Part shown: positions 8,418 through 29,968 of the stretch, piece by piece
Layout of the letters: every line of letters starts with the position of its first letter
Numbering within the stretch: the first letter of the stretch is position 1
From: Nitrospirota bacterium
GTDB lineage: Bacteria; Nitrospirota; Nitrospiria; 2-01-FULL-66-17
Length of the DNA: 35,857 nt
Direction: 5' to 3'
NCBI GenBank assembly: GCA_016201825.1
Contig: JACQCD010000127.1
Span: 1-35,857 of the forward strand
Made by a program: the position numbers and the translations under genes
The notes under the pieces: model-generated
Told to the model about the DNA's origin: nothing
What the model saw: only the letters and a program-made list of their open reading frames with translations
The model's database searches: none

Positions 8418-8678
8418 CTAGCTCGCCTGCGGGGCCACGGCTCCGGCCGCCGCCTGCTTGAGAAGCTGTTTGACGGTGTCGGTGGTCTGTGCCCCTTGCT
8501 TCAACCAGCCCGCCACACGGGTGAGATCCACCCGAATACCGGACGTGTCGGCCAGAGGATCATACGTTCCCAACACCTCAATAAACCGTCCATCCCGCGG
8601 CGAGCACGAATCCGCCACGACGATGCGATAAAAAGGTCGCTTGTGTCGACCGTGCCGCGTCAACCGAATCTTTACCAT
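8418..8678 (-). CDS. rpsP: Small ribosomal subunit protein bS16
   Basis: 30S assembly protein. The 86 residues begin [20 protein letters not shown] and include [13 protein letters not shown], the usual bS16 core, with a short Ala-rich tail. AAAGGGG upstream of ATG 8678 is the likely RBS, and it lies inside the 3' end of the upstream PAS/GGDEF-like gene, only 4 bp away. The two are therefore almost certainly on one transcript. The KH-domain gene that often separates rpsP and rimM is absent. Confidence 0.97.
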
Positions 8679-8682: not shown

Positions 8683-9561
8683 TCAATCCCCTTTCCGTCC
8701 TATCACCCCTGGTTCGCGTGTTGTGCCCCGTGCCAACCGCTGGCGAGCCGCCCTGAGCAGCCCCCCGTATCCGTCCTCCCCCACCGTGCCGATACCGTGT
8801 CGAACGACAAAGGGCGCCGTAAACGCCCCCGTCGCCCGGATCGCCGCGACCTTGGACTCGATGCGACTAATCAAGCTGGCAGCGCCAGCCGCGTCCGTAT
8901 CTAATAACACCATCGCAAAGGTCTGATAGTCATGCCGACCCGCGAGATCGACTTTGCGAAGCGAAGCGCGAATGGCGTCCCCAACCACGCGGATCACCTG
9001 ATCCGCCTCCGGCCCGTCCAGCGCATCGCCCGAAAGGGCAGTGATCACGGCAGCCAAGACACGCCCTTGACGCTCGGCCAGCTTGATTTCCCGGCGGTAC
9101 AGGTCATCGAAGTACGCCCGCGCGTAGAGGCCCGATACGCGATCGAACCGCTCGATCGAGAGAATCCGCTCCTCCAGCTCAGCCCGGTCCGACACATCCC
9201 GAATGAGGATCATGGCGAGCGGGGCCCCCTCGATGCTTTTCATTGGGATGCACGCCGCCGGCGCCACCCGCCCTCCACGCCCCGGGATATTCACCTCCAG
9301 CCACGGATGGCTTTCGCCCCGCTCCAGCGCGGCCACGCCCGGACACGCCGTCTCGCACAACTCAAACCCTTCAGCATTTTGGCACACCGCCAATTCGCTG
9401 CACACCCGCATCCCCACCGATCCGGATGCGGCGGAGGCCGTCAAGCGTTCGGCCGCCGGATTGAGCGCGACGATCCGCAGCGCCCGGTCGATCACCATGA
9501 CGCCGTCCGACGTATGTTCAAACAGCTCCTTGAGCCGCTCCCGCTCGATCTCGAATGCCAC
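8683..9561 (-). CDS. PAS domain protein with degenerate GGDEF domain
   Basis: Putative cytoplasmic sensor of 292 residues. A PAS domain spans about 10-125 ([19 protein letters not shown]), followed by a linker coiled coil and a diguanylate-cyclase-like domain (about 138-285, [20 protein letters not shown]). At the GGDEF position the sequence reads DYQTF (about 211-215), so the metal- and GTP-binding residues are lost and cyclase activity is unlikely. The PAS holds four cysteines (54, 60, 69, 73) in a Cys-rich loop of the kind seen in some PAS sensors; redox or metal sensing is possible but unproven. GTG 9561 was chosen for its strong GGGGGAGG site. It sits between ffh and rpsP, an unexpected place for a signalling protein. 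Confidence 0.85.
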
Positions 9562-9615
9562 GCGTCGCCTCCCCCACCCGCATCGGTCGATGCGGGCGCC
9601 TGCTGCGTCGTGCGC

Positions 9616-10947
9616 CTAGGCGGAAAAGAGCCGGGCGGCCAAAGACCGCCCTCGGGGTCCGCTCAAGGTCTTCATCATTTTTTTGGCTTGGGCGAACTGC
9701 TTGAGCAGCTGATTGATTTCTTGAACCGTCGTACCGCTACCCCGGGCGATCCGCTTGCGACGACTGCCGTTGATCACCTCTGGGCTTCGTCGCTCGCGCG
9801 GGGTCATGGAACTCAACATCGCTTCGATCCGAACCAGATCGCGCTCGGGACTCTTGTCCGCCACCCGCTCCGCGAGTTTTGCGCCGCCAGGAATCATGCC
9901 GAGCAAGTCCGAAAAAGACCCGAGCTTTTTCACCTGCTGCAATTGTGCCCCGAAATCGTCGAGGGTAAACGAGTCGGAACGCAGTTTCTGATCGAGCACC
10001 CGCGCGTCATCTCTCGACAACACCTCTTGCGCCCGCTCCACGAGGCCGGCGACATCACCCATTCCCAGGATGCGGGACGCGGCGCGTTCGGGATGAAACG
10101 GCTCGAGCGCGGCCAGCGCTTCGCCAACCCCCACATATTTGATCGGCTTGCCCGTGACGGCGAGCATCGAAAGCATCGCCCCCCCTCGAGCATCGCCCTC
10201 GGTCTTGGTGAGGACGATCCCGGTGACGCCCACCCCCTGGTTAAACCGTTCGGCGATTGAAACCGCCGCCTGTCCCGTCATCGCGTCAGCCACCAGCAGC
10301 ACTTCGTGGGGCCGAACCGACTCACGGATCGCGACAAGCTCCCCCATCAACTCCTCATCGATCTGCAAGCGCCCCGCGGTATCCAGCACCACCAGATCGA
10401 TGTTCCCGCGGTCGGCTCTCGCCACGGCCGCGCGGCACACCGCTTCGGGCGTCTGCTCCCCAGACGGCGCGTGGACCGGCACGCCCACTTGCTCACCCAG
10501 AACCTCGAGTTGACGAATCGCCGCAGGCCGCTTTAAGTCGGCGGCGGCCAGCAAGACGCGGCGGCCGTCGGCGTGAAAGGCTCGGGCGATCTTCGCCGCA
10601 GTCGTCGTTTTCCCCGCCCCCTGTAGGCCGACGAGCATCACCACCGTGGGCGGATTGGGCGCGAGTTGAATGGGCCGATGAGATTGCCCCATCAAGGCGC
10701 ACAATTCTTCCCACACGATCTTGATAACCTGCTGGCCGGGGGTGAGACTCTGCAAGACCTCCTGAGTCAACGCACGCGCTTTGACGGACTCCAGCAGCGT
10801 CTTCACCACCGCGTAGTGCACGTCGGCTTCGAGGAGCGCCAGACGAACCTCGCGGAGGACATCCGTGACGGCGGCCTCATCCAACAGGCCCCGCCCTCGA
10901 AGTCGCTTGAAGATCGCCTCAAACTTCGATGTTAATGCATTCCACAT
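9616..10947 (-). CDS. ffh: Signal recognition particle protein Ffh
   Basis: GTPase of the bacterial SRP that targets nascent membrane proteins with 4.5S RNA and FtsY. The 443 residues show the N domain (first 90 or so residues), the G domain with VGLQGAGKTTTAAKIA (P-loop), DTAGRLQIDEELM, TKTEGDARGGAMLSM and the closing GVGE, and a methionine-rich M domain with SRRKRIARGSGTTVQEIN. It starts at ATG 10947, about 34 bases after the predicted transcription start of a good sigma70 promoter. It is the first gene of the ffh-rpsP-rimM-trmD run. Confidence 0.98.
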   Translation of the reverse strand: MWNALTSKFEAIFKRLRGRGLLDEAAVTDVLREVRLALLEADVHYAVVKTLLESVKARALTQEVLQSLTPGQQVIKIVWEELCALMGQSHRPIQLAPNPPTVVMLVGLQGAGKTTTAAKIARAFHADGRRVLLAAADLKRPAAIRQLEVLGEQVGVPVHAPSGEQTPEAVCRAAVARADRGNIDLVVLDTAGRLQIDEELMGELVAIRESVRPHEVLLVADAMTGQAAVSIAERFNQGVGVTGIVLTKTEGDARGGAMLSMLAVTGKPIKYVGVGEALAALEPFHPERAASRILGMGDVAGLVERAQEVLSRDDARVLDQKLRSDSFTLDDFGAQLQQVKKLGSFSDLLGMIPGGAKLAERVADKSPERDLVRIEAMLSSMTPRERRSPEVINGSRRKRIARGSGTTVQEINQLLKQFAQAKKMMKTLSGPRGRSLAARLFSA

Positions 10948-11629: not shown

Positions 11630-11890
11630 TTACGCACGGGGGCTATCTGCCGGAGCGTCGCGGCCGGGCCGCGTCGGTGAGGCGGTCACGCGTTGGCGAA
11701 CCGACGGCGGCGCCGGCGGTTGAGCGAGCTGCATTCTGAGAATATCGAGGAACGCCCTTTCGGCCACAAAAGCCTCGCGGCACGGGGTACAGCACTCCAG
11801 GTGCGCTTGCGCGCAGAGCGAATCCTTGACGTCCAGTTCGCCGTCCAGATGAGGGTGCATCAGCTTCATGATCGTCGAACACTCGTCCAT
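11630..11890 (-). CDS. Zinc-finger anti-sigma factor (ZAS/zf-HC2 family)
   Basis: A short 86-residue protein beginning MDECSTIMKLMHPHLDGELD, with the zinc-binding HxxxCxxC motif in AHLECCTPCREAF (about residues 30-40). This is the anti-sigma domain that clamps ECF sigma factors, here without any membrane segment, so it should be cytoplasmic and possibly redox-sensitive through its Cys-zinc site. It lies 96 bp downstream of the ECF sigma gene, the normal pairing. The Pro/Arg-rich tail after residue 58 is probably disordered. The signal is unknown. Confidence 0.88.
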   Translation of the reverse strand: MDECSTIMKLMHPHLDGELDVKDSLCAQAHLECCTPCREAFVAERAFLDILRMQLAQPPAPPSVRQRVTASPTRPGRDAPADSPRA

Positions 11891-11986
11891 TGTATCCGGG
11901 GTTGAGGGTCAGGGAGTGAAAGGGGACAGAGTCTTCGCTACCGAATCTCGATCGTGCCGTGCAAATGAAGAGGAGAATCGCCGCGC

Positions 11987-12589
11987 TTAGGCGACGGCGT
12001 GTTGCGGATGATCGGCCTGGACCCGACCGCCCCCCCAATAGTCTTTGAGCGATTTCTTCAAAAGATTTCGCCCTCTCGACAACCGAGACATCACCGTCCC
12101 GAGCGGGCAACTCATGATTTCAGCGATCTCTTTGTAATCGAATCCTTCGACGTCTTTCAACAGCACCGCAAGACGCAGTTTCTCCGGAAGAGCGTCCATG
12201 GCGCGCTGAAAATCCTGGCGAAAGAGCCCTTTCTCGTGCCGGCCTCGTGCCGCCACCAGGATTTCTTTGGGAGATTCGTACGGATCGTCGTCCATCACCT
12301 CGAGTTCGGTCAGCGAGACTTCACGCGCACGCTGATGATATCGATTGATGAACAGGTTCTTCGTAATCGTAAATAACCACGCCTTGTAGTTCGCGATCTG
12401 CTCGTACCGGTGGTAGAAGCGGTAGGCTCGCAAGTAGGCATCTTGAACCAGGTCGTGCGCGTCGTCGCTGTTTCCCGTCAAGACCAAGGAAAAACCGTAC
12501 AGCGAATCGAGGTACTGCAGGGTCAGTTCTTCAAACTCAGCTTTTTTGGTTTCTTCCGGTGCGACAAACGCCAAAACGCCGTTTTGCAT
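11987..12589 (-). CDS. ECF-type RNA polymerase sigma factor
   Basis: Alternative sigma factor of about 200 residues. Region 2 is visible as LTLQYLDSLYGFSLVLTGNSDDAHDLVQDAYLRAY with the following NYKAWLFTITKNLFINRY. Region 4 is PEKLRLAVLLKDVEGFDYKEIAEIMSCPLGTVMSRLSRGR, a helix-turn-helix for the -35 element. ATG 12589 was chosen because GGAG lies 9 bases upstream and the sequence before it does not resemble a sigma factor. It pairs with the zinc-finger anti-sigma gene downstream. I could not identify a matching ECF promoter in the 276-bp upstream gap, so the regulon is unknown. Confidence 0.93.
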   Translation of the reverse strand: MQNGVLAFVAPEETKKAEFEELTLQYLDSLYGFSLVLTGNSDDAHDLVQDAYLRAYRFYHRYEQIANYKAWLFTITKNLFINRYHQRAREVSLTELEVMDDDPYESPKEILVAARGRHEKGLFRQDFQRAMDALPEKLRLAVLLKDVEGFDYKEIAEIMSCPLGTVMSRLSRGRNLLKKSLKDYWGGGRVQADHPQHAVA

Positions 12590-12865
12590 GGTTTTTACTC
12601 CGCAGAACGGATAGTTCGAAATGCAAGTACAGCGCCAAGCCTTTAGAGCGAGCTTGGGCCGGTTAGAGGAGCAGCGGAGGGCGTAAACTGGCAAAAAGTG
12701 AGACTAGTTTTCTCTTATTTTGACCTGATCTCCACCCGTTTTAGACACGAAGCCATAGGCGAGCCACGGGGCGCAGAGAAGATCACTCCGCGCCCGTGGC
12801 AATATGGCGTAGATCCGAGCAACAATGGTCTTTTTTCGTCAGCGCCTGAGGTCGAGGTGCCCTTT
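12590..12865. other. Gap between nrdJ and the sigma gene with a long hairpin
   Basis: No gene is supported here. The main structure is a hairpin at 12763-12800. Read on the minus strand GCCAC pairs with GTGGC, GGGCGC with GCGCCC and GAG with CTC, with one G-U pair and one bulge around a 7-base loop. It sits about 65 bases past the nrdJ stop, but no T-run follows, so it may be a Rho-type end or processing site. The sigma-gene promoter should also lie here but was not recognised. Confidence 0.6.
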
Positions 12866-15232
12866 TCAGCTACAGCGCGAGTACCCGCAAACCCCACATT
12901 TCTCACATCCTTCCTCGAACTTCAGCTCACACCCACAGTCTGGACATGGAAACGTGACTTTGCCGGTCCGGTCATCCAAGAGCGTCGAAAACGATTTGAG
13001 TTGGAGGTCCTGGTCTGGCGACTTGAGCCTCAGATACTCGGCCAGACTCTTGGCAATCGCATCCGAACAAGACAGGACGCGGTCGGGGCCCAGACCGTAG
13101 GGTTTATCGCAACGGATCCCGATGAGCTGCTTGACGATGGCCTGCGGGTCGGCCCCGGCACGGAGCGCGAGCGAAATGAGCCGCCCGATGGCTTCGTTGA
13201 AAGACCCCTCACACCCCCCCGACTTACCCATCATATTGAAGACCTCGAACGCGCGCCCGGTCTCATCTTGGTTGACCGTGACGTAGAGGTCTCCGCAGGT
13301 GGTCTTGGTTCGGCTCGTGCTACCGGTGGTCGTTCGGGGGCGAGGCTTGGGCATAATCAGTTGAGCGGAGGACTGGCTCTCATTCGCAACCGCTGGAGCT
13401 GGCGGCGCAACGATCACGGCTGCCGACTGACTCGGCACAGAGACCAGGGCTTTTGACGATTGCCCGACATTGAGGACCTGTTCGGCTCGGCTGGAGTCTC
13501 GATAGACGGTGATGCCTTTACACCCCAGGTTGTACGCCAACAGGTAGGCCTTCTTGACCTCGTCGACCGTCGCGTTCGACGGCATATTGATCGTTTTCGA
13601 AACCGCGCTGTCGGTGTAGGCCTGGAAAGCCGCCTGCATCTTCACGTGCCATTCCGGCGAAATATCGTGGGACGTGGCGAACACTCGCTGCCAATGCACC
13701 GGCACCTCGGCCAGCCCGCGGGCTGAGCCGTGGTTGTCCAGAATCTTTTGGATCAAATCCTCACGCCAGAAACCTTCGCGCTTGGCCACGACGATGAACT
13801 CATCGAGGACGTATGGCAGGTGTTCGCCGTCCATGACGTTCTTGTACCAGATGAGCGAAAACTCGGGCTCGCAGCCGCCGGAAGTGTCGGCGATCATCGA
13901 AATCGTCCCGGTCGGCGCAACCGTGGTCACGTAGGAATTGCGCAGACGGTGACCCTGCTGCTGGTGCAGCGACCCTTCCCAGTACGCGTACGGTCCACGT
14001 TCGTCGGCCAATTGTCTCGACTCGTCGTATCCGGTTTCACGAAAGAACTTCATCATCCGCCGGCCCATCTCGACGCCTTCGTCAGAATCGTATGGAATGC
14101 CGAGCTTAAAGAGCACCCGTGCAAAGCCCATAATGCCGAGACCGATCTTGCGATTGGCTTTGGTGACCTCCTCGATTTGAGGAATCGGATAATTGTTCAT
14201 GTCGATGACATTGTCGAGGAATCGGACGCTCGTTCGAATGTTCCGCTCCAGCCGCGCCCAATCGACGTCGTATCGCCCCTCGCGCTCAACCACGTGCCGC
14301 TCGACGTTGATGCTGCCAAGATTGCATGATTCATAGGGAAGCAGCGGTTGTTCGCCGCACGGATTGGTGGCCTCCATCGCCGCGATGTGGGGGGTGGGGT
14401 TGGCCCGGTTGGTCACATCGATAAAGAACAGCCCCGGCTCGCCGTTACGCCAAGCCGCTTGAGCAATCTTGTCGAAGACCTCGCGGGCCGGCAGGCGGCG
14501 GACCACCTCGCCCCGACGCGGGCTGACCAAGTCGTATTCCTCGCCTCGCTCAACCGCCTCCATGAACCGATCGGTGATCGCGACGCTGATATTGAAGTTG
14601 GTGATCTCTTTTGAATCGGTCTTACACGTGATGAATTCGAGGATATCGGGATGATCGACGCGGAGGATCCCCATGTTCGCGCCGCGCCGCGTGCCGCCCT
14701 GCTTGACCGCTTCGGTCGCGTGGTTGAAGACCTTCATGAACGAAACCGGTCCCGACGCCACGCCCCCGGTGGACCGGACCACGTCGTCTTTGGGCCGTAA
14801 CCGCGAAAACGAAAATCCCGTCCCGCCACCCGTCTTGTGGATGATCGCGGCCTGTTTGACGGTTTCGAAGATTTCCTCCATCGAGTCGCCGACCGGGAGG
14901 ACGAAACACGCCGAGAGCTGCTGCAATTCACGGCCGGCGTTCATCAAGGTTGGGGAGTTGGGCAGGAAGTCCAGCTCGGCCATCAGCCCGTAAAACGCCT
15001 CATAGGCCCGCTCCACGTCGGCATCGCTTCCGTAGCGACCCTCGGCCCGGGCCATATTGCGCGCGACGCGTTCGAACAATTGTTGCGGGGTCTCGATCAC
15101 CTGACCGCGCTCGTCCTTCGCCAGATACCGCTTAGAGAGGACCCGCAGGGCGTTGGGCGAAATCCGCGGGGCTGAGTGCGCTGAACCGTTCCGCGCCGGA
15201 TCGCCTGTCATCATCTGGGCGCCTTCCTTCAT
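12866..15232 (-). CDS. nrdJ: Adenosylcobalamin-dependent (class II) ribonucleotide reductase
   Basis: Makes deoxyribonucleotides from ribonucleotides in the cytoplasm using coenzyme B12 to generate a thiyl radical, with or without oxygen. The 788 residues contain the reductase barrel: FLPNSPTLMNAGR, the redox cysteine C109 (LSACFVLPVG), the radical site N290-C292-E294 (NPCGEQPLL), partner C303 (ESCNLGSINV) and TVAPTGTISMIADTSGG. After a Pro/Thr-rich linker comes a TSCPD domain (CGDLYVTVNQDETGRAFEVF) and a cysteine-rich tail, KCGVCGYSRC, suited to reduction of the active site. There is no ATP-cone domain. ATG 15232 has AAGGAGG 8 bases upstream. It is monocistronic, with its own promoter. Confidence 0.98.
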   Translation of the reverse strand: MKEGAQMMTGDPARNGSAHSAPRISPNALRVLSKRYLAKDERGQVIETPQQLFERVARNMARAEGRYGSDADVERAYEAFYGLMAELDFLPNSPTLMNAGRELQQLSACFVLPVGDSMEEIFETVKQAAIIHKTGGGTGFSFSRLRPKDDVVRSTGGVASGPVSFMKVFNHATEAVKQGGTRRGANMGILRVDHPDILEFITCKTDSKEITNFNISVAITDRFMEAVERGEEYDLVSPRRGEVVRRLPAREVFDKIAQAAWRNGEPGLFFIDVTNRANPTPHIAAMEATNPCGEQPLLPYESCNLGSINVERHVVEREGRYDVDWARLERNIRTSVRFLDNVIDMNNYPIPQIEEVTKANRKIGLGIMGFARVLFKLGIPYDSDEGVEMGRRMMKFFRETGYDESRQLADERGPYAYWEGSLHQQQGHRLRNSYVTTVAPTGTISMIADTSGGCEPEFSLIWYKNVMDGEHLPYVLDEFIVVAKREGFWREDLIQKILDNHGSARGLAEVPVHWQRVFATSHDISPEWHVKMQAAFQAYTDSAVSKTINMPSNATVDEVKKAYLLAYNLGCKGITVYRDSSRAEQVLNVGQSSKALVSVPSQSAAVIVAPPAPAVANESQSSAQLIMPKPRPRTTTGSTSRTKTTCGDLYVTVNQDETGRAFEVFNMMGKSGGCEGSFNEAIGRLISLALRAGADPQAIVKQLIGIRCDKPYGLGPDRVLSCSDAIAKSLAEYLRLKSPDQDLQLKSFSTLLDDRTGKVTFPCPDCGCELKFEEGCEKCGVCGYSRCS

Positions 15233-17792: not shown

Positions 17793-18842
17793 CTAGTCGG
17801 CGAGACGCCAGTAACGCAGAGTGGGTTCGCCCGAACGATCCACCACGGCCAGGACGGCCTTCTTGACGCCGTTGGCGGCGCCCTCGGCGTAGACCGAAAA
17901 GTGTTGGCTTCGCACATCGAGCTGCGACTGCAATTGACTCACGACGGCCGAGGACATGCCGGACACTTGGTTGAGCTGGGTTAGGATCGAGAACGGCCGG
18001 GCGTCGACGAGCTTATCGACCTGCGCCTCATCGAGCGGGAACGTGACCTGAGCCTGATTCGGTTCCTTGATCGGGAGCGTCCGTAGGACCAGCGGGTCGG
18101 CGGTATTAACGTTGATTTTATTCTCTCCGCCGAATTTGTTCCCATACACCGTGAGGTACGGACTGATCGCGCGATAGACCTCATCGGTGATGCCCTTGAC
18201 CAAATGAAGTTCCGCGAGCGTCTCGAACTGACCGTTGCGGCAATGGTACGGCCGGTCCAGACGTTGGTAATACACCGTCTCGGCCCCGCCCGGCTCTTCG
18301 ACATCATCCCGGTCCAGCCAATCGACGATCGCGTCAACCGGCGCGGGATCGAGGCCTTTGAGTTGAAACAGCTTCTTGAGCTGCTCGATCGCCAGGGGCA
18401 AGTGGATGGTGCCATCTGGGTTCACCAGCGCGTTGACGTTGATCTTGCCGCCCTCATCCTGGATCGCCACGGCGACGGTGCCGTCTCCCAGGGGATAGGG
18501 CGGAAACGGCGTCGCCCACAATTCGGTCAACGAATCGATCTGGGTCCGGTTCTTATCATCCTTCAGCACGGCCTGCGCGGCGGCGATGCCCGACGTCGCG
18601 AGGTAAAAGGCCTTCAGCCCATCCCGAAAATTGCCCGCGGCCTTCAGCGTGGTGCGGGTCGACTGGTCGAATTCGAGGACGGCCGTGACCAGCAACACGA
18701 CGACCAGCAGCGTGAGCACGAGTGCCATGCCCCGTTCGCCCTTTCCCTCCCCCCTTGCGGGCGCGAGGCAACGATCCAGCGTCACGCTAGAGGAGGGCAG
18801 GGTGGGGGGCAAGCGCGCCCGCCGGTCAGGGGATTTTTTCAT
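17793..18842 (-). CDS. gspK: Type II secretion minor pseudopilin GspK
   Basis: Large minor pseudopilin thought to cap the secretion pseudopilus with GspI and GspJ. The 349-residue precursor has the cleavage region GERG-MALVLTLLVVVLLVTAVLEF; as in other GspK proteins the usual Glu at +5 is absent. The globular part contains GGKINVNALVNPDG, IVDWLDRDD and the helix-hairpin-helix-like block KINVNTADPLVLRTL. The pre-cleavage leader is about 38 residues, far longer than usual, and includes a Gly/Arg/Glu-rich segment that looks like translated repeat DNA. ATG 18842 overlaps gspM by 17 bp. It is the last gsp gene of the operon. Confidence 0.93.
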   Translation of the reverse strand: MKKSPDRRARLPPTLPSSSVTLDRCLAPARGEGKGERGMALVLTLLVVVLLVTAVLEFDQSTRTTLKAAGNFRDGLKAFYLATSGIAAAQAVLKDDKNRTQIDSLTELWATPFPPYPLGDGTVAVAIQDEGGKINVNALVNPDGTIHLPLAIEQLKKLFQLKGLDPAPVDAIVDWLDRDDVEEPGGAETVYYQRLDRPYHCRNGQFETLAELHLVKGITDEVYRAISPYLTVYGNKFGGENKINVNTADPLVLRTLPIKEPNQAQVTFPLDEAQVDKLVDARPFSILTQLNQVSGMSSAVVSQLQSQLDVRSQHFSVYAEGAANGVKKAVLAVVDRSGEPTLRYWRLAD

Positions 18843-19374
18843 ACGTGGCGACCACGAACGACCCGTCGAGCAGTTTCGGATCCGCGTACCGCGTCTTCAG
18901 ACGCACGGACTTCACGCGAATCCGCTGGGGCGCGTGGTCGAGCGCGGTGAGATACGCGACGACTTGGGGAAGCGTGACGCTCTCCATCTTGAGTTCCGCG
19001 CTCACCTCGTGGTAGGGCGGCAACGCCTGGGTGGGCTGGGGGCGGATCGAGACCAGACGATTGCGCACTTGCTGGCCCGACGCGGTCTCTTCAAGAAACG
19101 AGAGCAACGAAAACGTGCCCGGCGAGGCGATCGCGCGGTTCGACCCCGTCACTCGACCCTCCGCCTCGCGGTACTCCCCGACCAAGCGCGTCACGCGTTC
19201 CAGATCCGCCTGGCGCTGGACGATCAGCCGGTCGAGCCGCGCGCTCCGCGCCAAGAGAGGGTCGATCACCAGGCCATAGCCGAGCATGATCGCCACCGCA
19301 GCGGCGCCCAGGCCAAGCACCAGGCGCTCGCGGTCGTTACGCTCCCGCCACAGCGCGACAAGGCGTTCCCGCAT
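18826..19374 (-). CDS. gspM: Type II secretion inner-membrane protein GspM
   Basis: Bitopic partner of GspL in the inner-membrane platform. The 182 residues show a short basic cytoplasmic N-terminus (MRERLVALWRERNDRERLV), one helix (about 20-38), a coiled coil (LDRLIVQRQADLERVTRLV) and a small periplasmic ferredoxin-like domain ending VRLKTRYADPKLLDGSFVV. ATG 19374 has GGGAGG at 7 bases and was preferred to an ATG five codons earlier that falls inside that RBS. Assignment rests on topology and on position after gspL, since GspM sequences vary widely. Confidence 0.87.
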   Translation of the reverse strand: MRERLVALWRERNDRERLVLGLGAAAVAIMLGYGLVIDPLLARSARLDRLIVQRQADLERVTRLVGEYREAEGRVTGSNRAIASPGTFSLLSFLEETASGQQVRNRLVSIRPQPTQALPPYHEVSAELKMESVTLPQVVAYLTALDHAPQRIRVKSVRLKTRYADPKLLDGSFVVATYEKIP

Positions 19375-19459
19375 CAGACGCCCTCCCATCCCCGCAAAGC
19401 GGGAGGCGCAACGCAGGCGCGAAGTCCCGCGCCGAGGCTGCGAGAAGCTCTTGACACGA
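19375..19459 (-). repeat. gspL-gspM gap with two hairpins and the gspM RBS
   Basis: In an operon whose genes otherwise abut, this 85-base gap holds two inverted repeats: GGCGCG/CGCGCC at 19416-19433 and CCCGC/GCGGG at 19391-19403. On the minus strand it ends GGATGGGAGG, the same string as the rplS RBS, and also has GCCTGCG in a similar position. It may be a third, diverged member of the leader family seen at groEL and rplS. Confidence 0.45.
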
Positions 19460-20899
19460 TCACACCCCCTCCGCCAACGTGATGGTCATCAGAAACCTGA
19501 TCTTGGACTGGTCCGCCGTCGTCTTGGCGTCGCTCACGGCGAGGTGACGCACTGCGGGAGACTTGGCCAGGGCGCTTTCGATCCGGTTCACCCAGTCGAA
19601 CGACGTGGTCTCGGCCTCGATTCGCACCTTGTCCTGTTCGATCACAAGTTCCGACACCGCGATCCCGCTTTCCTTGGGAATCGAATCCGTCAGGGCGAGC
19701 AGGACATCCAGGACGCGGACCTCCCCTCCAAGAAAGGCCCGCTGTTTGGTCAGGGTCTCGATGGCCGCCTGGAGTTGATCGGTTTCGCTGACCACGGTGG
19801 TGACCTGCGGAAGCGCCGCGTGAAACGCCGCGCGCACCCGGTCCGACAGCTCACGATACCGGTGCTCCTTCATCGTCGCCCGCACACCCAGGTCAACGCC
19901 ACCCACCGTGAGCACCACCGCCGCCATGATGCTCGCCGTCAGCACCCGCTTCCGCCGCCCCGCCCGCTCACGACCGTAGGCAAACTCGCCGCGACGGAAA
20001 TCGATCACGCCCTCGTGCCCCAAGCCGGCCACCGCGAGACCCGCGGCGACGGCGAACGGCCCCAGCGGTCGCGGCCCGTCAACCAGCGGCTGCGAGGGCC
20101 ACTCGATCCGCTTGAGCCCCAGACGCTCGGCCAGGAAGGCGCCGACTTCAGGGGCATCCACCCATCGGCCGCTCAGCGCCATCGCCTCGACCGCGCGCCC
20201 CGCCTCGACCGCGTCGGCCTGCGCTGTGCGCCGTAACTCATCGAGGGGCTGATGCCACGCGGACTCCACGTCCAGCGGCGCGCCCGCCGCGAGACGCTGC
20301 GCGCGCGCGCCATCCCAGACAATGCCGCGCATGGCCCGCACCCGTCGACCTTCAAGCAGAGCGACCGACAGCGAGCGGTCGTCGACGTGGACCAGCGCCA
20401 GATCCGCCAGCGACGGCAACCAGATTTCGGCTGCGACCGCCAACGCGACGGCGTCCACGGTCACCACGCGGGGATCGATCCCCGCCTTCCCCGCCTCGTC
20501 CAGTAGGGCTTTGACGGTCGCTTTGGGCGCGGCGACCGCGAGGACGCGCGATCGACCGGATGCCTGGGCGATGATCGATCCATCGATCACCACCTCGTCG
20601 AGTTCGAACGGGAGTTGGCCTTCGAGTTCGGAGGGGAGGGCGGCGTCCAGCTTGGCCCGCTGCGTGAACGGCAGGGTCACCAGCCGCGTGGACACCGCGT
20701 GAACCGGCAGGCCGATCGTGATCGGCTCGGTTTTGAGGTTCGCGTCCCGCTTGAGCGCGCGAAGCGTCTCACTCAACCCCTCGGGGCCGTCCGCGATCGA
20801 TCGGGTCAGGACCCGTTCGACCCTCGCGCCCTTGAACCCCCGGTTGACGACCGCGAGCGTCACCACCCGCGCGCCGATATCGATTCCCGCGCCGCGCAT
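19460..20899 (-). CDS. gspL: Type II secretion inner-membrane protein GspL (PilM/PilN-like)
   Basis: Links the cytoplasmic ATPase GspE to the inner-membrane platform. The 479 residues comprise an actin-like cytoplasmic domain (about 1-285, starting GAGIDIGARVVTLAVV, with LVTLPFTQRAKLDAALPSEL and ALVHVDDRSLSVALL), one membrane helix (about 322-340, TASIMAAVVLTVGGVDLGV) and a PilN-like periplasmic domain preceded by a coiled coil. This single-chain PilM-PilN arrangement is normal for GspL. ATG 20899 lies 3 bases after the gspN stop. Confidence 0.9.
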   Translation of the reverse strand: MRGAGIDIGARVVTLAVVNRGFKGARVERVLTRSIADGPEGLSETLRALKRDANLKTEPITIGLPVHAVSTRLVTLPFTQRAKLDAALPSELEGQLPFELDEVVIDGSIIAQASGRSRVLAVAAPKATVKALLDEAGKAGIDPRVVTVDAVALAVAAEIWLPSLADLALVHVDDRSLSVALLEGRRVRAMRGIVWDGARAQRLAAGAPLDVESAWHQPLDELRRTAQADAVEAGRAVEAMALSGRWVDAPEVGAFLAERLGLKRIEWPSQPLVDGPRPLGPFAVAAGLAVAGLGHEGVIDFRRGEFAYGRERAGRRKRVLTASIMAAVVLTVGGVDLGVRATMKEHRYRELSDRVRAAFHAALPQVTTVVSETDQLQAAIETLTKQRAFLGGEVRVLDVLLALTDSIPKESGIAVSELVIEQDKVRIEAETTSFDWVNRIESALAKSPAVRHLAVSDAKTTADQSKIRFLMTITLAEGV

Positions 20900-20902
20900 G
20901 GG

Positions 20903-21799
20903 CTACGAAAGAGGCGTCCCGTTGAGCGTCACGGCCGGCTTCGCAAGCCGGCCTTTGATCTGGACGGTGATCGGACCGCCCGTCGTGCCCGCCAGCGCCA
21001 GCAACGGCATCCGCGACGCCGCGCCCTGCGCGGGCGCCAGCGTGAGCGTCACGTTGATGAGGCTTTCGGTCCAGGGGCTCCGCACGAGCACCGTGCCATC
21101 GCCCGAAGCGGTGCCCAGCGCCCCGCGCGCCATTAGTCGCTGGAGCGTCACCGTTCCCCCCTTCAGCGCCACCTGCGCCGTCATCGTGTCGAACTCAATC
21201 CCATTCACGGGGAACCCCGCCACCGTCAGCCCGTTGACCCGCAACCCCGCCACCTCGGCCGATCCCGTCCCCTCGCCCATCCACCAGGCGCCGTTCGTCC
21301 AACGACCACTCACCTCAAAACCCACGGTGCCCCGCCACTCGCCGGCGGGCAGCCTCGGCAGACGAGCCAGATCAAACCCTTGCCCGAACTGATCGAGCGC
21401 GGACCGGACACCGTCCGGCTCTCGCCGCGCCACCCAGCTTCCGCGCACGCGCCCTCCATAGGCCTCCCACGCCAGATCGGCATCCACGGTTCGCCGCACA
21501 AGCGGCAGCAGCGCGACCCGCACGCGGAGCGCGTCGACCAGCAGCGCGCGATCGTCCCCGCTCGGGGGCTCGATCCGGACGCCTCGCCACCGCAGGCCCA
21601 GCGGAAGCACGAAGCGACCGTCGTCCACCGTGATCCGGGAGTGCGTCTGCCGCGCAAGCGCCTCCACCATCGCGACCTGCAACCGGTCGTACGGAAACGA
21701 CACGACCAGAAACACCGCCAACACCGCAACGGCATACAGCGCATAGCCGACGAGCGAGCGCCAAGCAATCCGCGCGAGACCCTCCCGTGTCGGACTCAC
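20903..21799 (-). CDS. gspN: Type II secretion protein GspN
   Basis: Inner-membrane protein with a periplasmic AsmA/LptC-like beta domain, found in some type II systems. It has one N-terminal helix (GYALYAVAVLAVFLVVSF) followed by ARQTHSRITVDDGRFVLPLGLRWRGVRIEPP and a repetitive beta-strand region ending in a GspN-type LNGTPLS. The start is uncertain: GTG 21799 gives MSPTREGLARIAWRSLVGYA directly before the helix. A TTG at 21898 would add 33 residues (including PLPSGEVAWRGVGG) that overlap gspJ and look like translated repeat DNA. It sits between gspJ and gspL instead of after gspM. Confidence 0.83.
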   Translation of the reverse strand: MSPTREGLARIAWRSLVGYALYAVAVLAVFLVVSFPYDRLQVAMVEALARQTHSRITVDDGRFVLPLGLRWRGVRIEPPSGDDRALLVDALRVRVALLPLVRRTVDADLAWEAYGGRVRGSWVARREPDGVRSALDQFGQGFDLARLPRLPAGEWRGTVGFEVSGRWTNGAWWMGEGTGSAEVAGLRVNGLTVAGFPVNGIEFDTMTAQVALKGGTVTLQRLMARGALGTASGDGTVLVRSPWTESLINVTLTLAPAQGAASRMPLLALAGTTGGPITVQIKGRLAKPAVTLNGTPLS

Positions 21800-21827
21800 G
21801 GCGCCGCCCACCCCTCGCCACGCCACC

Positions 21828-22601
21828 TCACCGGACGGCAAGGGGTAACGACACCACGGTCCGCAGACGTTCCGGGGGCGCGGTCCCGATTCCCGCAAGT
21901 CCCACCGTCACTTCGACCGCCTGGGGAAGTCGGCGGCGCTGCGCGGCATCCCAGGCATCCACCCACTCGGCGTCTGCGCGATACCGGAGCTTGAACTCGG
22001 TCACCCCTTCCGCCACCTCGTCGCTGGCCACCGCCCACGACGCGTCGGTCAGCAGATTTGACCGTTCTTCCCGCACCAGCCGGCCGGCGCCGGCTTCCGC
22101 ATCGACCTCCACCCGATATGCGACCTCCGAGACGTCTGACTCGGGACGCCCTTCCACATACCGGCGATGGGCGAAGGTCGTCCAGACCAGTTTGTCCATG
22201 CGAGTGTCCGGCTCCAACGCCGGACCGGTCGTGCCCTCAAACCGTCCGCTTCCGCCGGATGATTCGGGAAACCAATACGCCGCCGACAACTCGTCGACCA
22301 ATCGCTCGGTGATGAGCTGGACCTGACGGACCCGCTCGGTCGCGTCCGCCGTTTCGCGGGTGACGTCCAGACTGCGGGCAAACGCGCCATACACCAGCGT
22401 CACGACCACCGCCAACAGCGCGATCGCTACCACAACCTCGATCAACGTAAACCCGCACTGCGCCGACGGCGCAGGTGACAATCGTTCCCCTCCTCTCGGA
22501 TCGCGAAGCAACCCGCACTGCGCCAAGGGCGCAGAATGTAATCGCCCCCATCCTCGCGGGTCGCGAAGCAACCCGCACTGCGCCCGGTCGTGCGGTTTCA
22601 C
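21828..22601 (-). CDS. gspJ: Type II secretion minor pseudopilin GspJ with repeat-expanded leader
   Basis: Minor pseudopilin of the tip complex. The mature protein starts FTLIEVVVAIALLAVVVTLVYGAF, with Glu at +5, then a globular domain with RVRQVQLITERLVDELSAAYW and EGVTEFKLRYRADAEW. The GTG at 22601 overlaps the gspI stop (GTGA) with GGAAG upstream, which gives a leader of 50 residues. That leader is MKPHDRAQCG plus two 20-residue repeats (LLRDPRG..., each ending AQCG). Without the repeats it would be a normal 10-residue leader. An in-frame TTG at the tenth codon before Phe +1, with AGGAGG 7 bases upstream, is an alternative start inside the last repeat. Confidence 0.9.
   Translation of the reverse strand: MKPHDRAQCGLLRDPRGWGRLHSAPLAQCGLLRDPRGGERLSPAPSAQCGFTLIEVVVAIALLAVVVTLVYGAFARSLDVTRETADATERVRQVQLITERLVDELSAAYWFPESSGGSGRFEGTTGPALEPDTRMDKLVWTTFAHRRYVEGRPESDVSEVAYRVEVDAEAGAGRLVREERSNLLTDASWAVASDEVAEGVTEFKLRYRADAEWVDAWDAAQRRRLPQAVEVTVGLAGIGTAPPERLRTVVSLPLAVR
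22450..22569 (-). repeat. Two tandem 60-bp hairpin repeats in the gspJ leader
   Basis: Units 22450-22509 and 22510-22569 abut exactly, and a partial third match continues to about 22584 over the original leader. Each has the hairpin CTGCGCC-N3-GGCGCAG and ends GCGGGTT on the minus strand. The unit next to the mature sequence contains AGGAGGGG, AACGA and TTG; the distal unit has TTA at the TTG position. The length keeps the reading frame. Confidence 0.92.
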
Positions 22602-23170
22602 GACGCGCTTCCGCTCCGCATCCTCTGGAACACGTAGCTCACCAGGTCCACGCGTTCCTCGCGCGGTGATTCGTTCCACAGGACCGTCACGCGCACCTCG
22701 TGGACGAAATCAAACGGCGTGACGTTGACGTCCTGTCGCCACCGAAACCGCGCGTGCTCTTCATCGAAGGCGCCTTCGGTGGTTCCGACGTCGGGAAACC
22801 CCGCCACCGTCGTATCCGCCATCCGCTGCTGGGCCAGCGCGGTCGCTATGATGAGAGAACGACCGTATTCGTGCAAGACCACGTCTCGATTGCGAAGCCC
22901 CAATAGGGCGACGAACGCGATGGCAATGATCGCCAACGCGACCATAATCTCGATCAACGTAAATCCGCCCTGCGCCAAGGGCGCAGGTGACAATCGTTCC
23001 TCTCCCCTCGGATCGCGAAGCAACCCGCACTGCGCCAAGGGCGCAGATTGTAGATCTCTCCTTCCGCTCGGGTGGCGAAGCAATCCGCCCTGCGCCAAGG
23101 GTGCAGCCTGTCGATCTCTCCATCCTCTCGGTTGGCGCACCACGCCGAGACGATCCCGAAACCACCTCAT
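22598..23170 (-). CDS. gspI: Type II secretion minor pseudopilin GspI with repeat-expanded leader
   Basis: Minor pseudopilin of the tip complex. Mature part: FTLIEIMVALAIIAIAFVALLGLRN with Glu +5, then LIIATALAQQRMADT, the conserved GspI stretch, and a short globular domain. ATG 23170 overlaps the gspH stop by 4 bp. The leader is 69 residues: MRWFRDRLG plus three exact 20-residue repeats ending AQGG, AQCG and AQGG. Removing the three leaves MRWFRDRLG directly before FTLIE, a typical 9-residue prepilin leader with Gly -1. The in-frame TTG in the nearest unit, preceded by GGGGAGAGG, could also start translation. Confidence 0.93.
   Translation of the reverse strand: MRWFRDRLGVVRQPRGWRDRQAAPLAQGGLLRHPSGRRDLQSAPLAQCGLLRDPRGEERLSPAPLAQGGFTLIEIMVALAIIAIAFVALLGLRNRDVVLHEYGRSLIIATALAQQRMADTTVAGFPDVGTTEGAFDEEHARFRWRQDVNVTPFDFVHEVRVTVLWNESPREERVDLVSYVFQRMRSGSAS
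22962..23141 (-). repeat. Three tandem 60-bp hairpin repeats in the gspI leader
   Basis: Units 22962-23021, 23022-23081 and 23082-23141, each exactly 60 bases. The hairpin CTGCGCC-AAG-GGCGCAG is intact in the first two and has one G-U pair in the third. By hand count the first unit matches the first gspH unit at 57 of 60 bases but its own neighbour at only about 43 of 60. Confidence 0.93.
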
Positions 23171-23844
23171 GCCGCGTCCTTGGCCTCGACGTACCCGTCC
23201 ACCACCGTCACCCGCCCGGTGATGGGGTTGATCGTGAGGGTGTAGTGCGCACGGTCGCGCTCTTCTAAGTGGATCGTGGTGCGCGTCACGACTCCCGAGG
23301 GAAACACCTGGGTGAACGCCCGTCCCTGGGTCACCATCCCCTGGTGGGACGTAACGACGTCCTGGAATCGGACATCTGTCGGCAACGCCCGCTTGGCGCC
23401 GACCGGCGGGCCTTCTTCCAAGACACCCCCGGTCTGCGTCAGCGTGGTGACCCAGTATTCCTTCGTCTCAAGATCATAGTTCAAGCGCTGGATCGTGTGG
23501 GACGCGACCGCTTCCTGGACCAGCGCCGCAACGAGACCCGCCACGTCGCGCGACGCGGACCGCGCATCGCCCGCCATCACATGGAGGAGGCGAGGCGTGA
23601 CCAGCATGGCGACCAAACCAAGAATCACCACCACGATCATGATCTCAAGCAACGTAAATCCGCCCTGCGCCAAGGGCGCAGGTGACAATCGTTCCCCTCC
23701 CTTCGGATCGCGTAGCAACCCGCCCCGCGCCGACGGCGCGGCGTGTAATCCCTCTTCTCCGCCCGGGTGGCGCAGCACGCCGCGCGCAGGTAGGGGTTCA
23801 GCATGCTGAACCCCTACCCAAAGATCCCGAGGCACACCACTCAC
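23167..23844 (-). CDS. gspH: Type II secretion minor pseudopilin GspH with repeat-expanded leader
   Basis: Minor pseudopilin. Mature part FTLLEIMIVVVILGLVAMLVTPRL with Glu +5, then a GspH-like domain (GLVAALVQEAVASHTIQRLNY and LPTDVRFQDVV) and a C-terminal strand pair ending TVVDGYVEAK. GTG 23844 overlaps the gspG stop (GTGA). The leader has 62 residues: 22 encoded partly by a 28-base perfect palindrome (WVGVQHAEPLP), then two 20-residue repeats ending ARGG and AQGG. As in gspI and gspJ, a Shine-Dalgarno (GGGAGG) and TTG lie in the nearest unit. Confidence 0.9.
   Translation of the reverse strand: MSGVPRDLWVGVQHAEPLPARGVLRHPGGEEGLHAAPSARGGLLRDPKGGERLSPAPLAQGGFTLLEIMIVVVILGLVAMLVTPRLLHVMAGDARSASRDVAGLVAALVQEAVASHTIQRLNYDLETKEYWVTTLTQTGGVLEEGPPVGAKRALPTDVRFQDVVTSHQGMVTQGRAFTQVFPSGVVTRTTIHLEERDRAHYTLTINPITGRVTVVDGYVEAKDAA
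23657..23776 (-). repeat. Two tandem 60-bp hairpin repeats in the gspH leader
   Basis: Units 23657-23716 and 23717-23776. The distal unit has changed both hairpin arms together (CCGCGCC with GGCGCGG instead of CTGCGCC with GGCGCAG), a compensatory change that keeps the stem. A partial match continues to about 23790, where the palindrome begins. Confidence 0.92.
23790..23817. repeat. 28-base perfect palindrome inside the gspH leader
   Basis: The 14-base half GTAGGGGTTCAGCA is followed by its exact reverse complement. It is in frame in gspH and encodes VGVQHAEPL within the leader. In the mRNA it would form a very stable hairpin about 27 bases after the GTG start. It is unrelated in sequence to the 60-bp unit and looks like a second short palindromic repeat inserted beside it. 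Confidence 0.9.
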
Positions 23845-24350
23845 TTCAAATCCCAGTTTTCCAGATCGGCGTCCTTGCCCTCGCCCCCGCGTTCACCGTC
23901 GGCTCCATACGAGGCGAGGTCGAAATCGCCGTGGCTGCCGGGCGATAGGTAGACGTAGGCATGACTCCACGGGTCCTTGGGAACTTTGGGCACATAGCCC
24001 CCGGAGCGCCACCGCTCCGGGATGGGACTCATCGACGGTTTGGTCACCAGTGCCTCCAAGCCCTGCTCGGTCGTCGGATAGACGCCGTTGTCGAGTTTGT
24101 AGAGGTGGAGCGCCTCCTCGATATTTTTGATTTCAACAATGGCCGCGGTCCGCCTCGCATCATCGGTGCGCCCCACGATTTTCGGCACGACCAGAATGGC
24201 CAAAATCGCCAAGATCGTCACGACGACCATCACTTCGATCAGAGTAAACGCGCCTTCTGCGTGGCGACGCAATCCGCACTGCGCCAACGGCGCAGACTGT
24301 AATCGTTCCAGTCCTCTCGGATCGCGCAGCAATCCATCTTCGCGTGTCAT
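23841..24350 (-). CDS. gspG: Type II secretion major pseudopilin GspG with altered leader
   Basis: Main subunit of the secretion pseudopilus. Mature part FTLIEVMVVVTILAILAILVVPKIVGR with Glu +5, then DDARRTAAIVEIKNIEEAL, LDNGVYPTTEQGLEALV and the calcium-loop region KDPWSHAYVYLSPGSHGDFDLASYGADGERGG, all typical of GspG. ATG 24350 has GAAGG upstream and follows gspF by 7 bp. The leader is 34 residues: MTREDG, one 20-residue repeat, then a truncated repeat LRRHAEGA. The residue before Phe is therefore Ala, not the nearly universal Gly. Removing the insert would give MTREDG-FTLIE, a textbook leader. Confidence 0.95.
   Translation of the reverse strand: MTREDGLLRDPRGLERLQSAPLAQCGLRRHAEGAFTLIEVMVVVTILAILAILVVPKIVGRTDDARRTAAIVEIKNIEEALHLYKLDNGVYPTTEQGLEALVTKPSMSPIPERWRSGGYVPKVPKDPWSHAYVYLSPGSHGDFDLASYGADGERGGEGKDADLENWDLK
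24247..24330 (-). repeat. One full and one truncated 60-bp repeat in the gspG leader
   Basis: The full unit is 24271-24330, with hairpin CTGCGCC-AAC-GGCGCAG. A shortened second unit of about 24 bases (24247-24270) joins it to the mature coding sequence and lacks the usual GCGGNTT end. This explains the Ala at -1. The total insert of 84 bases keeps the frame. Confidence 0.85.
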
Positions 24351-24357
24351 TCGACCT

Positions 24358-25572
24358 TCACCTCACAATTTGGCTCATTTCAAAAATCGGCAAGAGAATC
24401 GCGAGGACGATGAAGAGAATCACCCCGCCCATCACCAGAATCATCACCGGCGAGAGCAACGCCGTGAGCGCCCCCACCGTGGTCTCGACCTCGTGGTCGT
24501 ACGCTTCCGACACCTTCTTCAGCATCGTTTCGAGTTCGCCGCTGAGTTCTCCGACCGCGATCATGTGGGTCACCAACGGCGGAAACACCCCGCTGCGGCG
24601 GAGCGGCTCGGCGATGCTTTGGCCCTGCCGGATATTCTCCCGGGCGGACTCGATCGCGTCGGCGATGACGACGTTGTGGACCACGTTCTTGACGATCTCC
24701 AGCGCGGTCAGCAGACCGATCCCTCCCGCGAGGAGCGTGCTCAAGGTCGAGGTAAACCGCGAAAGCGCGATCATGCGGACCAGGCGACCGATCACCGGCA
24801 GCCGCAGCGCCGAGGCATCGTAGCGACGGCGGCCCGCCGGAGTGCGAACGTACCGCGCGATCGCCACCCCCCCGCCAACCCCCGCGAGCGCGAGAACCCA
24901 CCAGCCCAGCCGGAGGGCATCGCTGAGCGCGATCAGGACCACGGTCGGCCACGGCAGCGCCTGGTGCATGTCGGCGAAGACGACCGTGACCTTCGGCACG
25001 ACGAACGCCACCAAAAAGACCAGGATGATCACGCTGACCGCCAACATCAGCAGCGGGTAGGTCAGCGCCGCCATCACTTGGTTGCGCAGGCGAGCCTGCC
25101 GCTCGAGAAACTCGGCCAGGCTTAAGAGCACGCGGTCCAACGTCCCGCTGGCCTCACCGACGCGCACCATGTTCACATACAGCAACGAGAACACCGAGGG
25201 GTGGGCCGCCAGCGCATCGGCGAACGAGGCCCCCTCGCGGATGCGTTCGCGCACCCCGGCGACGACACGCTTCACGGACGTGCGCTCGACCTGCTCGCCG
25301 AGCGCGCCGAGCGAATCCACCAAGGGAAGACCGGCGGTCAAGAGCGTGGAGAGCTGCCGCGTAAGCACCGATAACTCCGCCATGGACACGCGCTCGCCGA
25401 AGAGCGCCCGCCGTCCGCCGGCACTCGGCCGCGCGGCCCCGACCGCCACGTCCACCGGGAACACGCCGGTCCGCTTGAGCTTGAGCCGCGCCTCCTTGAC
25501 GTTGTCGGCGTCGATGACGCCGGAGACCGTCTTGCCCTCGGCCGTCAGCGCGGTGTACTCGAACACGGCCAT
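24358..25572 (-). CDS. gspF: Type II secretion inner-membrane platform protein GspF
   Basis: Polytopic platform protein that couples the GspE motor to pseudopilus growth. The 404 residues contain two repeated T2SSF domains (about 70-195 and 270-395), with LSVLTRQLSTLLTAGLPLVDSL and FTSTLSTLLAGGIGLLTALEI. Helices lie near 170-190, 220-240 and 375-400. The N-terminal MAVFEYTALTAEGKTVSGVI is the usual GspF start. ATG 25572 lies one base after the gspE stop. Confidence 0.97.
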   Translation of the reverse strand: MAVFEYTALTAEGKTVSGVIDADNVKEARLKLKRTGVFPVDVAVGAARPSAGGRRALFGERVSMAELSVLTRQLSTLLTAGLPLVDSLGALGEQVERTSVKRVVAGVRERIREGASFADALAAHPSVFSLLYVNMVRVGEASGTLDRVLLSLAEFLERQARLRNQVMAALTYPLLMLAVSVIILVFLVAFVVPKVTVVFADMHQALPWPTVVLIALSDALRLGWWVLALAGVGGGVAIARYVRTPAGRRRYDASALRLPVIGRLVRMIALSRFTSTLSTLLAGGIGLLTALEIVKNVVHNVVIADAIESARENIRQGQSIAEPLRRSGVFPPLVTHMIAVGELSGELETMLKKVSEAYDHEVETTVGALTALLSPVMILVMGGVILFIVLAILLPIFEMSQIVR

Positions 25573-25573
25573 C

Positions 25574-29914: not shown

Positions 29915-29968
29915 GATTCCTCCGTCGCGCCAAGCGACGAAAACCCCTGATCCGTCAATCACCTTCGC

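What the first reader, a model, noticed from the sequence alone, without database searches (positions are those of the whole stretch)
8683..9561. A PAS protein with dead GGDEF domain embedded in the SRP/ribosome operon
The gene lies between ffh and rpsP with only a 4-bp gap to rpsP, whose RBS is inside it. The GGDEF signature reads DYQTF, so it should not make c-di-GMP. The PAS domain has a four-cysteine loop. A sensor co-expressed with ffh, bS16, RimM and TrmD might adjust translation or targeting, or act as a binding scaffold.
Basis: partly seen in the sequence, partly recalled or inferred. Interest (0 to 1): 0.55.

Follow-up and report, generated by a model that had tools for sequence, protein, structure and literature searches.

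The report
Dead cyclase in SRP-ribosome operon
In some bacteria of the phylum Nitrospirota, a signalling enzyme that has lost its catalytic site but appears to keep the pocket for the messenger cyclic di-GMP sits between two protein-synthesis genes, and may link that messenger to protein targeting or ribosome production.

Summary
Window 8683-9561 (minus strand) encodes a 292-aa PAS-GGDEF protein between ffh and rpsP, 4 bp from rpsP, with DYQTF in place of GGDEF and a four-cysteine loop.

It is not a recent insertion. All 14 genomes found to carry it, from three families in two classes, have it right after ffh. rpsP follows in 13 of 14; the other contig ends first. The members form one fully supported group; the pairs that could be measured show purifying selection. 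None of 82 other inspected genomes has it there.

New point: of 31 columns at least 90% conserved in 40 other GGDEF domains of carrier genomes, only 4 survive in 13 of 13 members; two are the RxxD motif of the c-di-GMP inhibitory site. That site's further arginine is also invariant.

Best reading: a dead cyclase turned c-di-GMP receptor, made together with Ffh. That it binds c-di-GMP, or touches Ffh or the ribosome, is inference. One of the three families lacks the cysteine loop, so it is not essential to the shared role. The 4-bp gap is peculiar to this genome.

The parts
8683..9561 (-). PAS-GGDEF pseudo-cyclase gene (292 aa, GTG start)
   Evidence: ORF; Pfam GGDEF and PAS; orthologs at the same place in 13 further genomes
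9181..9540 (-). PAS domain (residues 8-127)
   Evidence: Pfam PAS_8 above cut-off; PAS_4 and PAS just below theirs
9343..9402 (-). Four-cysteine loop C54-x5-C60-x8-C69-x3-C73-P
   Evidence: conserved in two of three families
8827..9147 (-). Degenerate GGDEF domain (residues 139-245)
   Evidence: Pfam PF00990
8947..8958 (-). I-site motif R202-x-x-D205 (reads RKVD), five residues before the signature position
   Evidence: invariant in 13 of 13; corresponds to PleD R359/D362 by spacing (residue numbers and roles from PMC7288161 passages)
8917..8931 (-). Degenerate signature DYQTF (residues 211-215) where GGDEF stands in active enzymes
8863..8865 (-). R233, the further I-site arginine (PleD R390 by spacing, +18 from the F of the signature)
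   Evidence: invariant in 13 of 13; R in 19 of 40 background GGDEF domains
9616..10947 (-). ffh, signal recognition particle protein
   Evidence: NCBIfam TIGR00959, 557 bits against 473
8418..8678 (-). rpsP, ribosomal protein bS16
   Evidence: NCBIfam TIGR00002
7798..8397 (-). rimM
   Evidence: NCBIfam TIGR02273
7071..7853 (-). trmD
   Evidence: NCBIfam TIGR00088 and NF000648
6480..6905 (-). rplS (bL19)
   Evidence: Pfam PF01245
5828..6439 (-). rnhB
   Evidence: Pfam PF01351

Best explanation
The gene encodes an old, conserved pseudo-diguanylate cyclase that is made together with Ffh and bS16. SHOWN: fixed position after ffh in three families, one sequence group, purifying selection in the pairs measured, decay of the catalytic A-site, and retention of the three c-di-GMP inhibitory-site (I-site) residues that one GGDEF domain contributes. 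INFERRED, step 1: it binds c-di-GMP at the I-site and acts as a receptor, not an enzyme. INFERRED, step 2: the ligand state (and, in the window's family and the second-class family, a redox or metal state of the four-cysteine PAS loop) is passed by direct contact to a co-translated partner. The likeliest partner is the SRP GTPase Ffh, by analogy with BcsE, whose dead GGDEF domain binds both c-di-GMP and the SRP-superfamily NTPase BcsQ. It would thus couple membrane-protein targeting or ribosome supply to the motile/sessile signal.
For: Synteny: ffh lies directly upstream in 14 of 14 carriers, rpsP downstream in 13 of 14. One group: 13 of 13 rows against 20 other PAS-GGDEF rows, support 100/100. 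Selection: dN/dS (NG86) 0.15 and 0.14 for the window against its two nearest relatives, with both domains constrained. A-site lost: the second G of the signature is absent in 13 of 13; in the window's family the metal Asp, F, K, N and the signature G, G and E columns are changed in 3 of 3, while D187 is kept. I-site kept: R202 and D205 are 2 of only 4 among 31 generally conserved columns that survive in 13 of 13 (chance about 0.013). R202, D205 and R233 are all among 12 invariant of 168 GGDEF-part positions (chance about 0.0003 if columns were independent). Residue roles: PMC7288161 passages. c-di-GMP should exist in the cell: each carrier has 12 to 32 GGDEF matches (14 of 14 genomes), and the 40 that I read in three of them have near-canonical signatures. 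Precedents: BcsE (PMC7439463 passages) and CdgI (PMC5635695 passages).
Against: RxxD is common in ordinary GGDEF domains (37 of 40 background domains), so its presence alone is weak evidence; the argument rests on its survival while the rest decayed. The background was the better-scoring 40 of 68 GGDEF matches in three genomes, so it leans to canonical domains. The fourth I-site residue, an arginine from the neighbouring subunit (PleD R313, placed by hand with a recalled PleD sequence), is leucine in 3 of 3 of the window's family, though arginine in the other ten rows. In the second-class family part of the GTP site is also kept, so GTP could be the ligand there. The protein evolves faster than Ffh in the pairs compared (for example 61% against 82% identity in f5). 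No binding or interaction was tested. The structure model is poor (mean pLDDT 56), so surface conservation could not be mapped. Operon position shows co-expression at most, not contact. The 55 non-carriers of the class that I inspected have no such gene behind ffh.
Confidence: 0.4

Rival explanations
1. Pure scaffold: the GGDEF fold is kept only as a protein-protein surface, in the manner of CsrD, with no nucleotide ligand. The I-site residues are kept for fold reasons.
For: A degenerate GGDEF-EAL protein that does not appear to make, degrade or respond to c-di-GMP exists (CsrD, PMC5876332 passages); degenerate GGDEF domains make specific protein contacts (PMC5635695 passages). The fourth I-site residue is lost in the window's family.
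Against: Survival of RxxD plus the +18 arginine, when 27 of 31 generally conserved columns changed in at least one member, is not expected of a pure scaffold. The +18 arginine is found in only 19 of 40 ordinary domains, so the fold does not demand it.
Confidence: 0.25
2. GTP sensor: the ancestral and second-class forms bind GTP at the remnant A-site, as the degenerate GGDEF domain of Caulobacter CC3396 does, and report GTP level to the SRP GTPase or to translation. The window's form has lost this.
For: The second-class family keeps the first metal Asp, both guanine-contact residues (N and D) and the first G and the E of the signature, 7 of 7 rows. Its signature is G(D/E/N)DE(F/Y), one member reading GEDEF. 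GTP binding by the CC3396 domain is in PMC7288161 passages; that its signature reads GEDEF is recalled.
Against: The window's family has a 5-residue deletion there and has lost the metal Asp and the N, so GTP binding of this kind cannot be the function shared by all three families.
Confidence: 0.12
3. Hitch-hiker: an ordinary PAS-diguanylate cyclase fell between ffh and rpsP and is kept for a cellular c-di-GMP or other role unrelated to its neighbours; the strong operon simply supplies expression.
For: The other PAS-GGDEF proteins of the phylum, its outside relatives, include two with the same cysteine loop that are not beside ffh. No direct functional link to Ffh or the ribosome is shown.
Against: Single locus, unchanged neighbours in three deep lineages, and start codons that overlap ffh in six genomes (31 nt in three, 4 nt in three; coordinates) argue for a need for co-translation.
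Confidence: 0.2
4. Redox or metal sensor first: the four-cysteine PAS loop binds an Fe-S cluster or zinc and the dead GGDEF domain is only an output surface.
For: C-x5-C-x8-C-x3-C-P in 3 of 3 and 7 of 7 readable members of two families. PAS domains that hold [4Fe-4S] (NreB) or Zn (WalK) are known (PMC8534201 passages).
Against: 0 of 3 members of the third family have any of the four cysteines, yet they keep locus, fold and I-site. The loop is below pLDDT 50 in the model, so no site geometry could be read.
Confidence: 0.1

Closest known systems
BcsE (enterobacterial cellulose regulator)
   Same: Degenerate GGDEF domain that binds c-di-GMP through a kept RxxD I-site; partner BcsQ is an NTPase of the SRP/MinD/BioD superfamily, as Ffh is (PMC7439463 passages)
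   Different: BcsE carries a receiver-like domain and other regions, and sits in a cellulose operon; here no binding or partner has been shown
CdgI and PelD (degenerate GGDEF receptors)
   Same: Degenerate GGDEF domain that binds c-di-GMP through a kept I-site (CdgI: PMC5635695 passages; PelD: PMC7439463 passages)
   Different: Other partner domains and other cellular context
CsrD
   Same: Degenerate GGDEF protein tied to RNA control rather than c-di-GMP turnover (PMC5876332 passages)
   Different: Membrane-bound, has an EAL domain, reported not to respond to c-di-GMP; the present protein has PAS and no EAL
Caulobacter CC3396 GGDEF domain
   Same: Degenerate GGDEF domain that binds GTP as a signal (PMC7288161 passages); the second-class family keeps the residues for it
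   Different: Linked to an active EAL domain; the window's protein has lost most GTP-contact residues
NreB PAS domain
   Same: PAS domain that holds an Fe-S cluster (PMC8534201 passages); presumably through cysteines, as could happen here
   Different: Histidine kinase of Staphylococcus; its cysteine spacing is recalled as different from C-x5-C-x8-C-x3-C; cluster binding unknown here
PA0861 of Pseudomonas aeruginosa (5xgd, PAS-GGDEF-EAL)
   Same: Best fold match and a sequence-profile match over both domains (5xgb)
   Different: Has a further EAL domain; the model used for the fold match is of low confidence

Membership tests
Active diguanylate cyclase (GGDEF, PF00990) | GG(D/E)EF signature and substrate/metal residues of the A-site | tested here: not met
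   Second G absent in 13 of 13; the window reads DYQTF and lacks the metal Asp, F, K and N columns. Caveat: some altered signatures, such as AGDEF, are reported active (PMC3974145, title and abstract start only)
GGDEF fold | Profile match | tested here: met
   PF00990 matched by 13 of 13 members at E 0.01 or better, the window at 40.5 against a cut-off of 23.8 bits
PAS fold | Profile match | tested here: met
   PAS_8 matched by 13 of 13 members at E 0.01 or better; fold matches to PAS domains (low-confidence model)
Degenerate-GGDEF c-di-GMP receptor | RxxD five residues before the signature | tested here: met
   13 of 13 aligned, also in L102, which is masked only in its PAS part
Degenerate-GGDEF c-di-GMP receptor | Further I-site arginine (PleD R390) | tested here: met
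   R233 in 13 of 13 and in L102; 19 of 40 in background
Degenerate-GGDEF c-di-GMP receptor | Arginine given by the neighbouring subunit (PleD R313) | tested here: inconclusive
   Position placed by hand with a recalled PleD sequence: L in 3 of 3 of the window's family, R in the other 10 rows
Degenerate-GGDEF c-di-GMP receptor | Binds c-di-GMP | not testable with these tools
   Needs purified protein
CsrD-type RNA-turnover factor | EAL domain | tested here: not met
   Only PAS and GGDEF matches in 292 aa; a membrane anchor was not tested by a program
NreB-type Fe-S PAS sensor | Cysteines holding an oxygen-labile cluster | not testable with these tools
   Cysteines present; ligand unknown; absent in one family
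GTP-sensing degenerate GGDEF (CC3396 type) | Kept guanine- and metal-contact residues | tested here: not met
   Metal Asp and N lost in the window's family; kept in 7 of 7 rows of the second-class family

The most novel reading that the evidence does not exclude
A c-di-GMP receptor built from a dead cyclase is wired directly to the signal recognition particle: it binds Ffh (or the nascent ribosome) in a c-di-GMP-dependent way and so sets membrane-protein targeting by the motile/sessile signal, comparable to BcsE, whose dead GGDEF domain binds c-di-GMP and the SRP-superfamily NTPase BcsQ.
Probability: 0.2. Interest if true: 0.82.

Novelty: new variant of a known kind. Interest (0 to 1): 0.52.

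Why it matters
The ffh-rpsP-rimM-trmD-rplS stretch is a housekeeping block in which a signalling gene is unexpected; 77 of 82 other genomes inspected have rpsP right behind ffh. A second-messenger receptor held there in two classes would be a direct, testable route from c-di-GMP to protein targeting or ribosome supply. Reported links of c-di-GMP to the ribosome include RimK and rRNA methyltransferases (PMC4741518 and PMC11894153, abstract starts in the listing). None of the papers listed by my searches (1 paper; 2; 15 listed of 18; 15) deals with this locus or with a c-di-GMP receptor acting on Ffh, judged from titles and abstract starts only.

Tried and rejected
Recent insertion or decay: rejected. 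The 'stop inside' flag for G001 is an earlier natural stop near the C-terminus.

Horizontal transfer of the whole ffh unit: the Ffh tree does not unite the three carrier families and needs three changes, while the pseudo-cyclase tree is one group. One gain with losses, or transfer into the same spot, cannot be told apart, because the root and several deep branches are unresolved. For one search, 26 outside loci were tried and 20 kept; 6 with too short a match were dropped.

Plasmid origin: only weak hits, all under 60% identity; those listed that carry a gene name are annotated as GGDEF, EAL, kinase-like or cyclase proteins (one search listed 40 of 1758 records).

Terminator or promoter between the genes: scan counts are no higher than in shuffles. 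Rfam: no match in the window.

Structure: the AlphaFold2 model from a three-row alignment is weak. Fold matches to PAS-GGDEF proteins agree with sequence but add little.

Other phyla could not be searched: the genome-contig scan found only two members already known from the genome search, and its patterns, made from f1 and f5, did not bring up the second-class family.

dN/dS by YN00 mostly failed in the script; NG86 values are near saturation of dS, and the f5 pair gave no dS for this gene.

Full report
WHAT IS THERE. The gene is at the stated place, on the minus strand, with the stated neighbours. Its protein has a PAS domain (residues 8-127) and a GGDEF-type domain (139-245). The signature position reads DYQTF, and the PAS domain carries C54, C60, C69 and C73. 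The 4-bp gap to rpsP is real, and a likely ribosome-binding site of rpsP lies inside the gene (sequence). The gap is so short because this genome's protein has a longer C-terminus than its two nearest relatives, where gaps are 43 and 61 nt.

DISTRIBUTION. A search of 58 genomes (its own among them) gave near full-length matches in three genomes of the window's family f1 (100, 75, 69%) and in three of family f5 (28-29%); 57 of 58 have some match, the rest weaker hits that look like other PAS or GGDEF proteins. In all six, ffh lies directly upstream; rpsP follows in five, and the contig ends first in the sixth. A profile search of 395 genomes of the phylum showed a second group in family f23, another class: 8 genomes at 196-230 bits against 124 for the next protein. 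All eight have ffh, this gene, then rpsP; seven go on to khpA, rimM and trmD, and in the eighth (L096) the contig ends after rpsP. The class of f23 was then searched: 8 of the 10 genomes returned carry the gene, and the two that lack it (77-78% complete) also gave no ffh match.

NON-CARRIERS. I looked behind ffh in 82 further genomes, chosen to cover genera and families, not all 190 class genomes that have ffh. These were 39 non-carriers, 16 and 27 from outside the class. In 77, rpsP begins 33 to 347 nt after the end of the Ffh match, too close for this gene; in 5 (L076, L134, L136, L140, L143) rpsP was not in the fetched stretch. None of the 82 stretches gave a match to the gene.

ORIGIN AND SELECTION. 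On a tree with 20 other PAS-GGDEF proteins (of 26 tried; 6 short ones dropped) the 13 members fall on one side of a branch with full support. The Ffh tree of 67 rows does not unite the carriers; f5 groups, with good support, with families that lack the gene. So either an old gain was followed by several losses, or the gene moved into the same spot more than once; the data do not decide. Within f1, dN/dS (NG86) is 0.15 and 0.14 for the window against G001 and G002 (Ffh 0.12 and 0.09), with both halves constrained; two f23 pairs give 0.09 and 0.13 (Ffh 0.03 and 0.08); the f5 pair gave no usable dS for this gene. Synonymous sites are near saturation, so these are rough values, but they speak against a pseudogene. 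The gene evolves faster than ffh in each pair.

WHAT DECAYED AND WHAT STAYED. I took 40 other GGDEF domains from three carrier genomes (19 of G000, 13 of G011, 8 of G211) as background. They are 40 of the 68 matches that those genomes have and come from the better-scoring part of a capped list, so they lean to canonical domains. All 40 have a GGDEF-like signature, 37 have RxxD at the inhibitory-site spacing, 19 have arginine at +18 and 18 have both. Thirty-one columns are at least 90% conserved in that background. In the family only four of them are kept in 13 of 13: D140, R202, D205 and R209; the alignment of the last columns, after residue 250, is less sure. R202 and D205 are the RxxD motif; D140 and R209 probably form a structural pair (recalled, not tested). 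R233, at +18, is also invariant. In PleD these three correspond by spacing to R359, D362 and R390, the residues that one GGDEF domain gives to the c-di-GMP inhibitory site (PMC7288161, passages); a solved cyclase, 3ign, aligned to the family profile, shows the same spacing. The catalytic columns are lost most completely in f1, largely in f5, and least in f23, which keeps much of the GTP-contact set but never the second glycine of the signature.

THE CYSTEINE LOOP. C-x5-C-x8-C-x3-C-P is present in 3 of 3 f1 and 7 of 7 readable f23 members (L102 is masked there), and in none of 3 f5 members. The same spacing occurs in two PAS-GGDEF proteins that are not beside ffh, L007 (f9) and L008/L104 (f8); the L104 protein carries a canonical GGEEF signature. 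The loop therefore looks like an ancestral input module that f5 has dispensed with.

MECHANISM. Shown: position, conservation, constraint, dead A-site, kept I-site. Inferred: binding of c-di-GMP, then contact with a neighbour's product. Every carrier has 12 to 32 GGDEF matches (14 of 14), so the ligand is very probably made. BcsE is the closest working model: its degenerate GGDEF binds c-di-GMP by RxxD and also binds BcsQ, an NTPase of the SRP/MinD/BioD superfamily (PMC7439463, passages); there the two binding events are independent, so the analogy does not by itself give a switch. Ffh belongs to the same superfamily and is the most constant neighbour; in six genomes the start codon of this gene overlaps the end of ffh (31 nt in three f5 genomes, 4 nt in three f23 genomes). 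I put c-di-GMP binding at about 0.5 and contact with Ffh or the ribosome at about 0.3.

LIMITS. No binding data; a weak structure model (mean pLDDT 56, pTM 0.42, from the window's protein and two relatives only); no search beyond the phylum that could have found distant members; many genomes are incomplete assemblies. The chance figures treat columns as independent and are only a guide. The fourth I-site residue is not kept in the window's own family.

NOVELTY. Degenerate GGDEF receptors are a known kind. A family of them fixed in the ffh-rpsP block was not seen in the paper listings named in Why it matters.

Noticed in passing
25574-27289 (minus), within 17793-29962: A type II secretion gene cluster (C, D, E, F, J, K and L-like matches) whose E ATPase has an MshEN domain. 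MshEN is recalled as a known c-di-GMP-binding domain, so c-di-GMP may also control secretion in this genome.
   Followed up: no
11630-12694 (minus): An ECF-type sigma factor followed by a small zf-HC2 protein, likely its anti-sigma factor.
   Followed up: no
12866-15232 (minus): A ribonucleotide reductase with a TSCPD domain, probably the B12-dependent class (class recalled); Rfam finds no riboswitch in the window.
   Followed up: no
8932-10260 (plus): A 442-codon open frame antisense to ffh and the pseudo-cyclase, with no Pfam match at 1e-5; probably a by-product of high GC content.
   Followed up: partly
L007 1501-2220 (minus); L104 1378-2433 (plus): PAS-GGDEF proteins of other families, not beside ffh, with the same four-cysteine loop spacing; relatives of a possible source of the ffh-linked gene.
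   Followed up: partly
L005 2720-2992; L097 to L103 after rpsP: In f5 and f23 genomes a KhpA-like KH protein lies between rpsP and rimM; in the window and its two family members there is no room for it at that spot.
   Followed up: no
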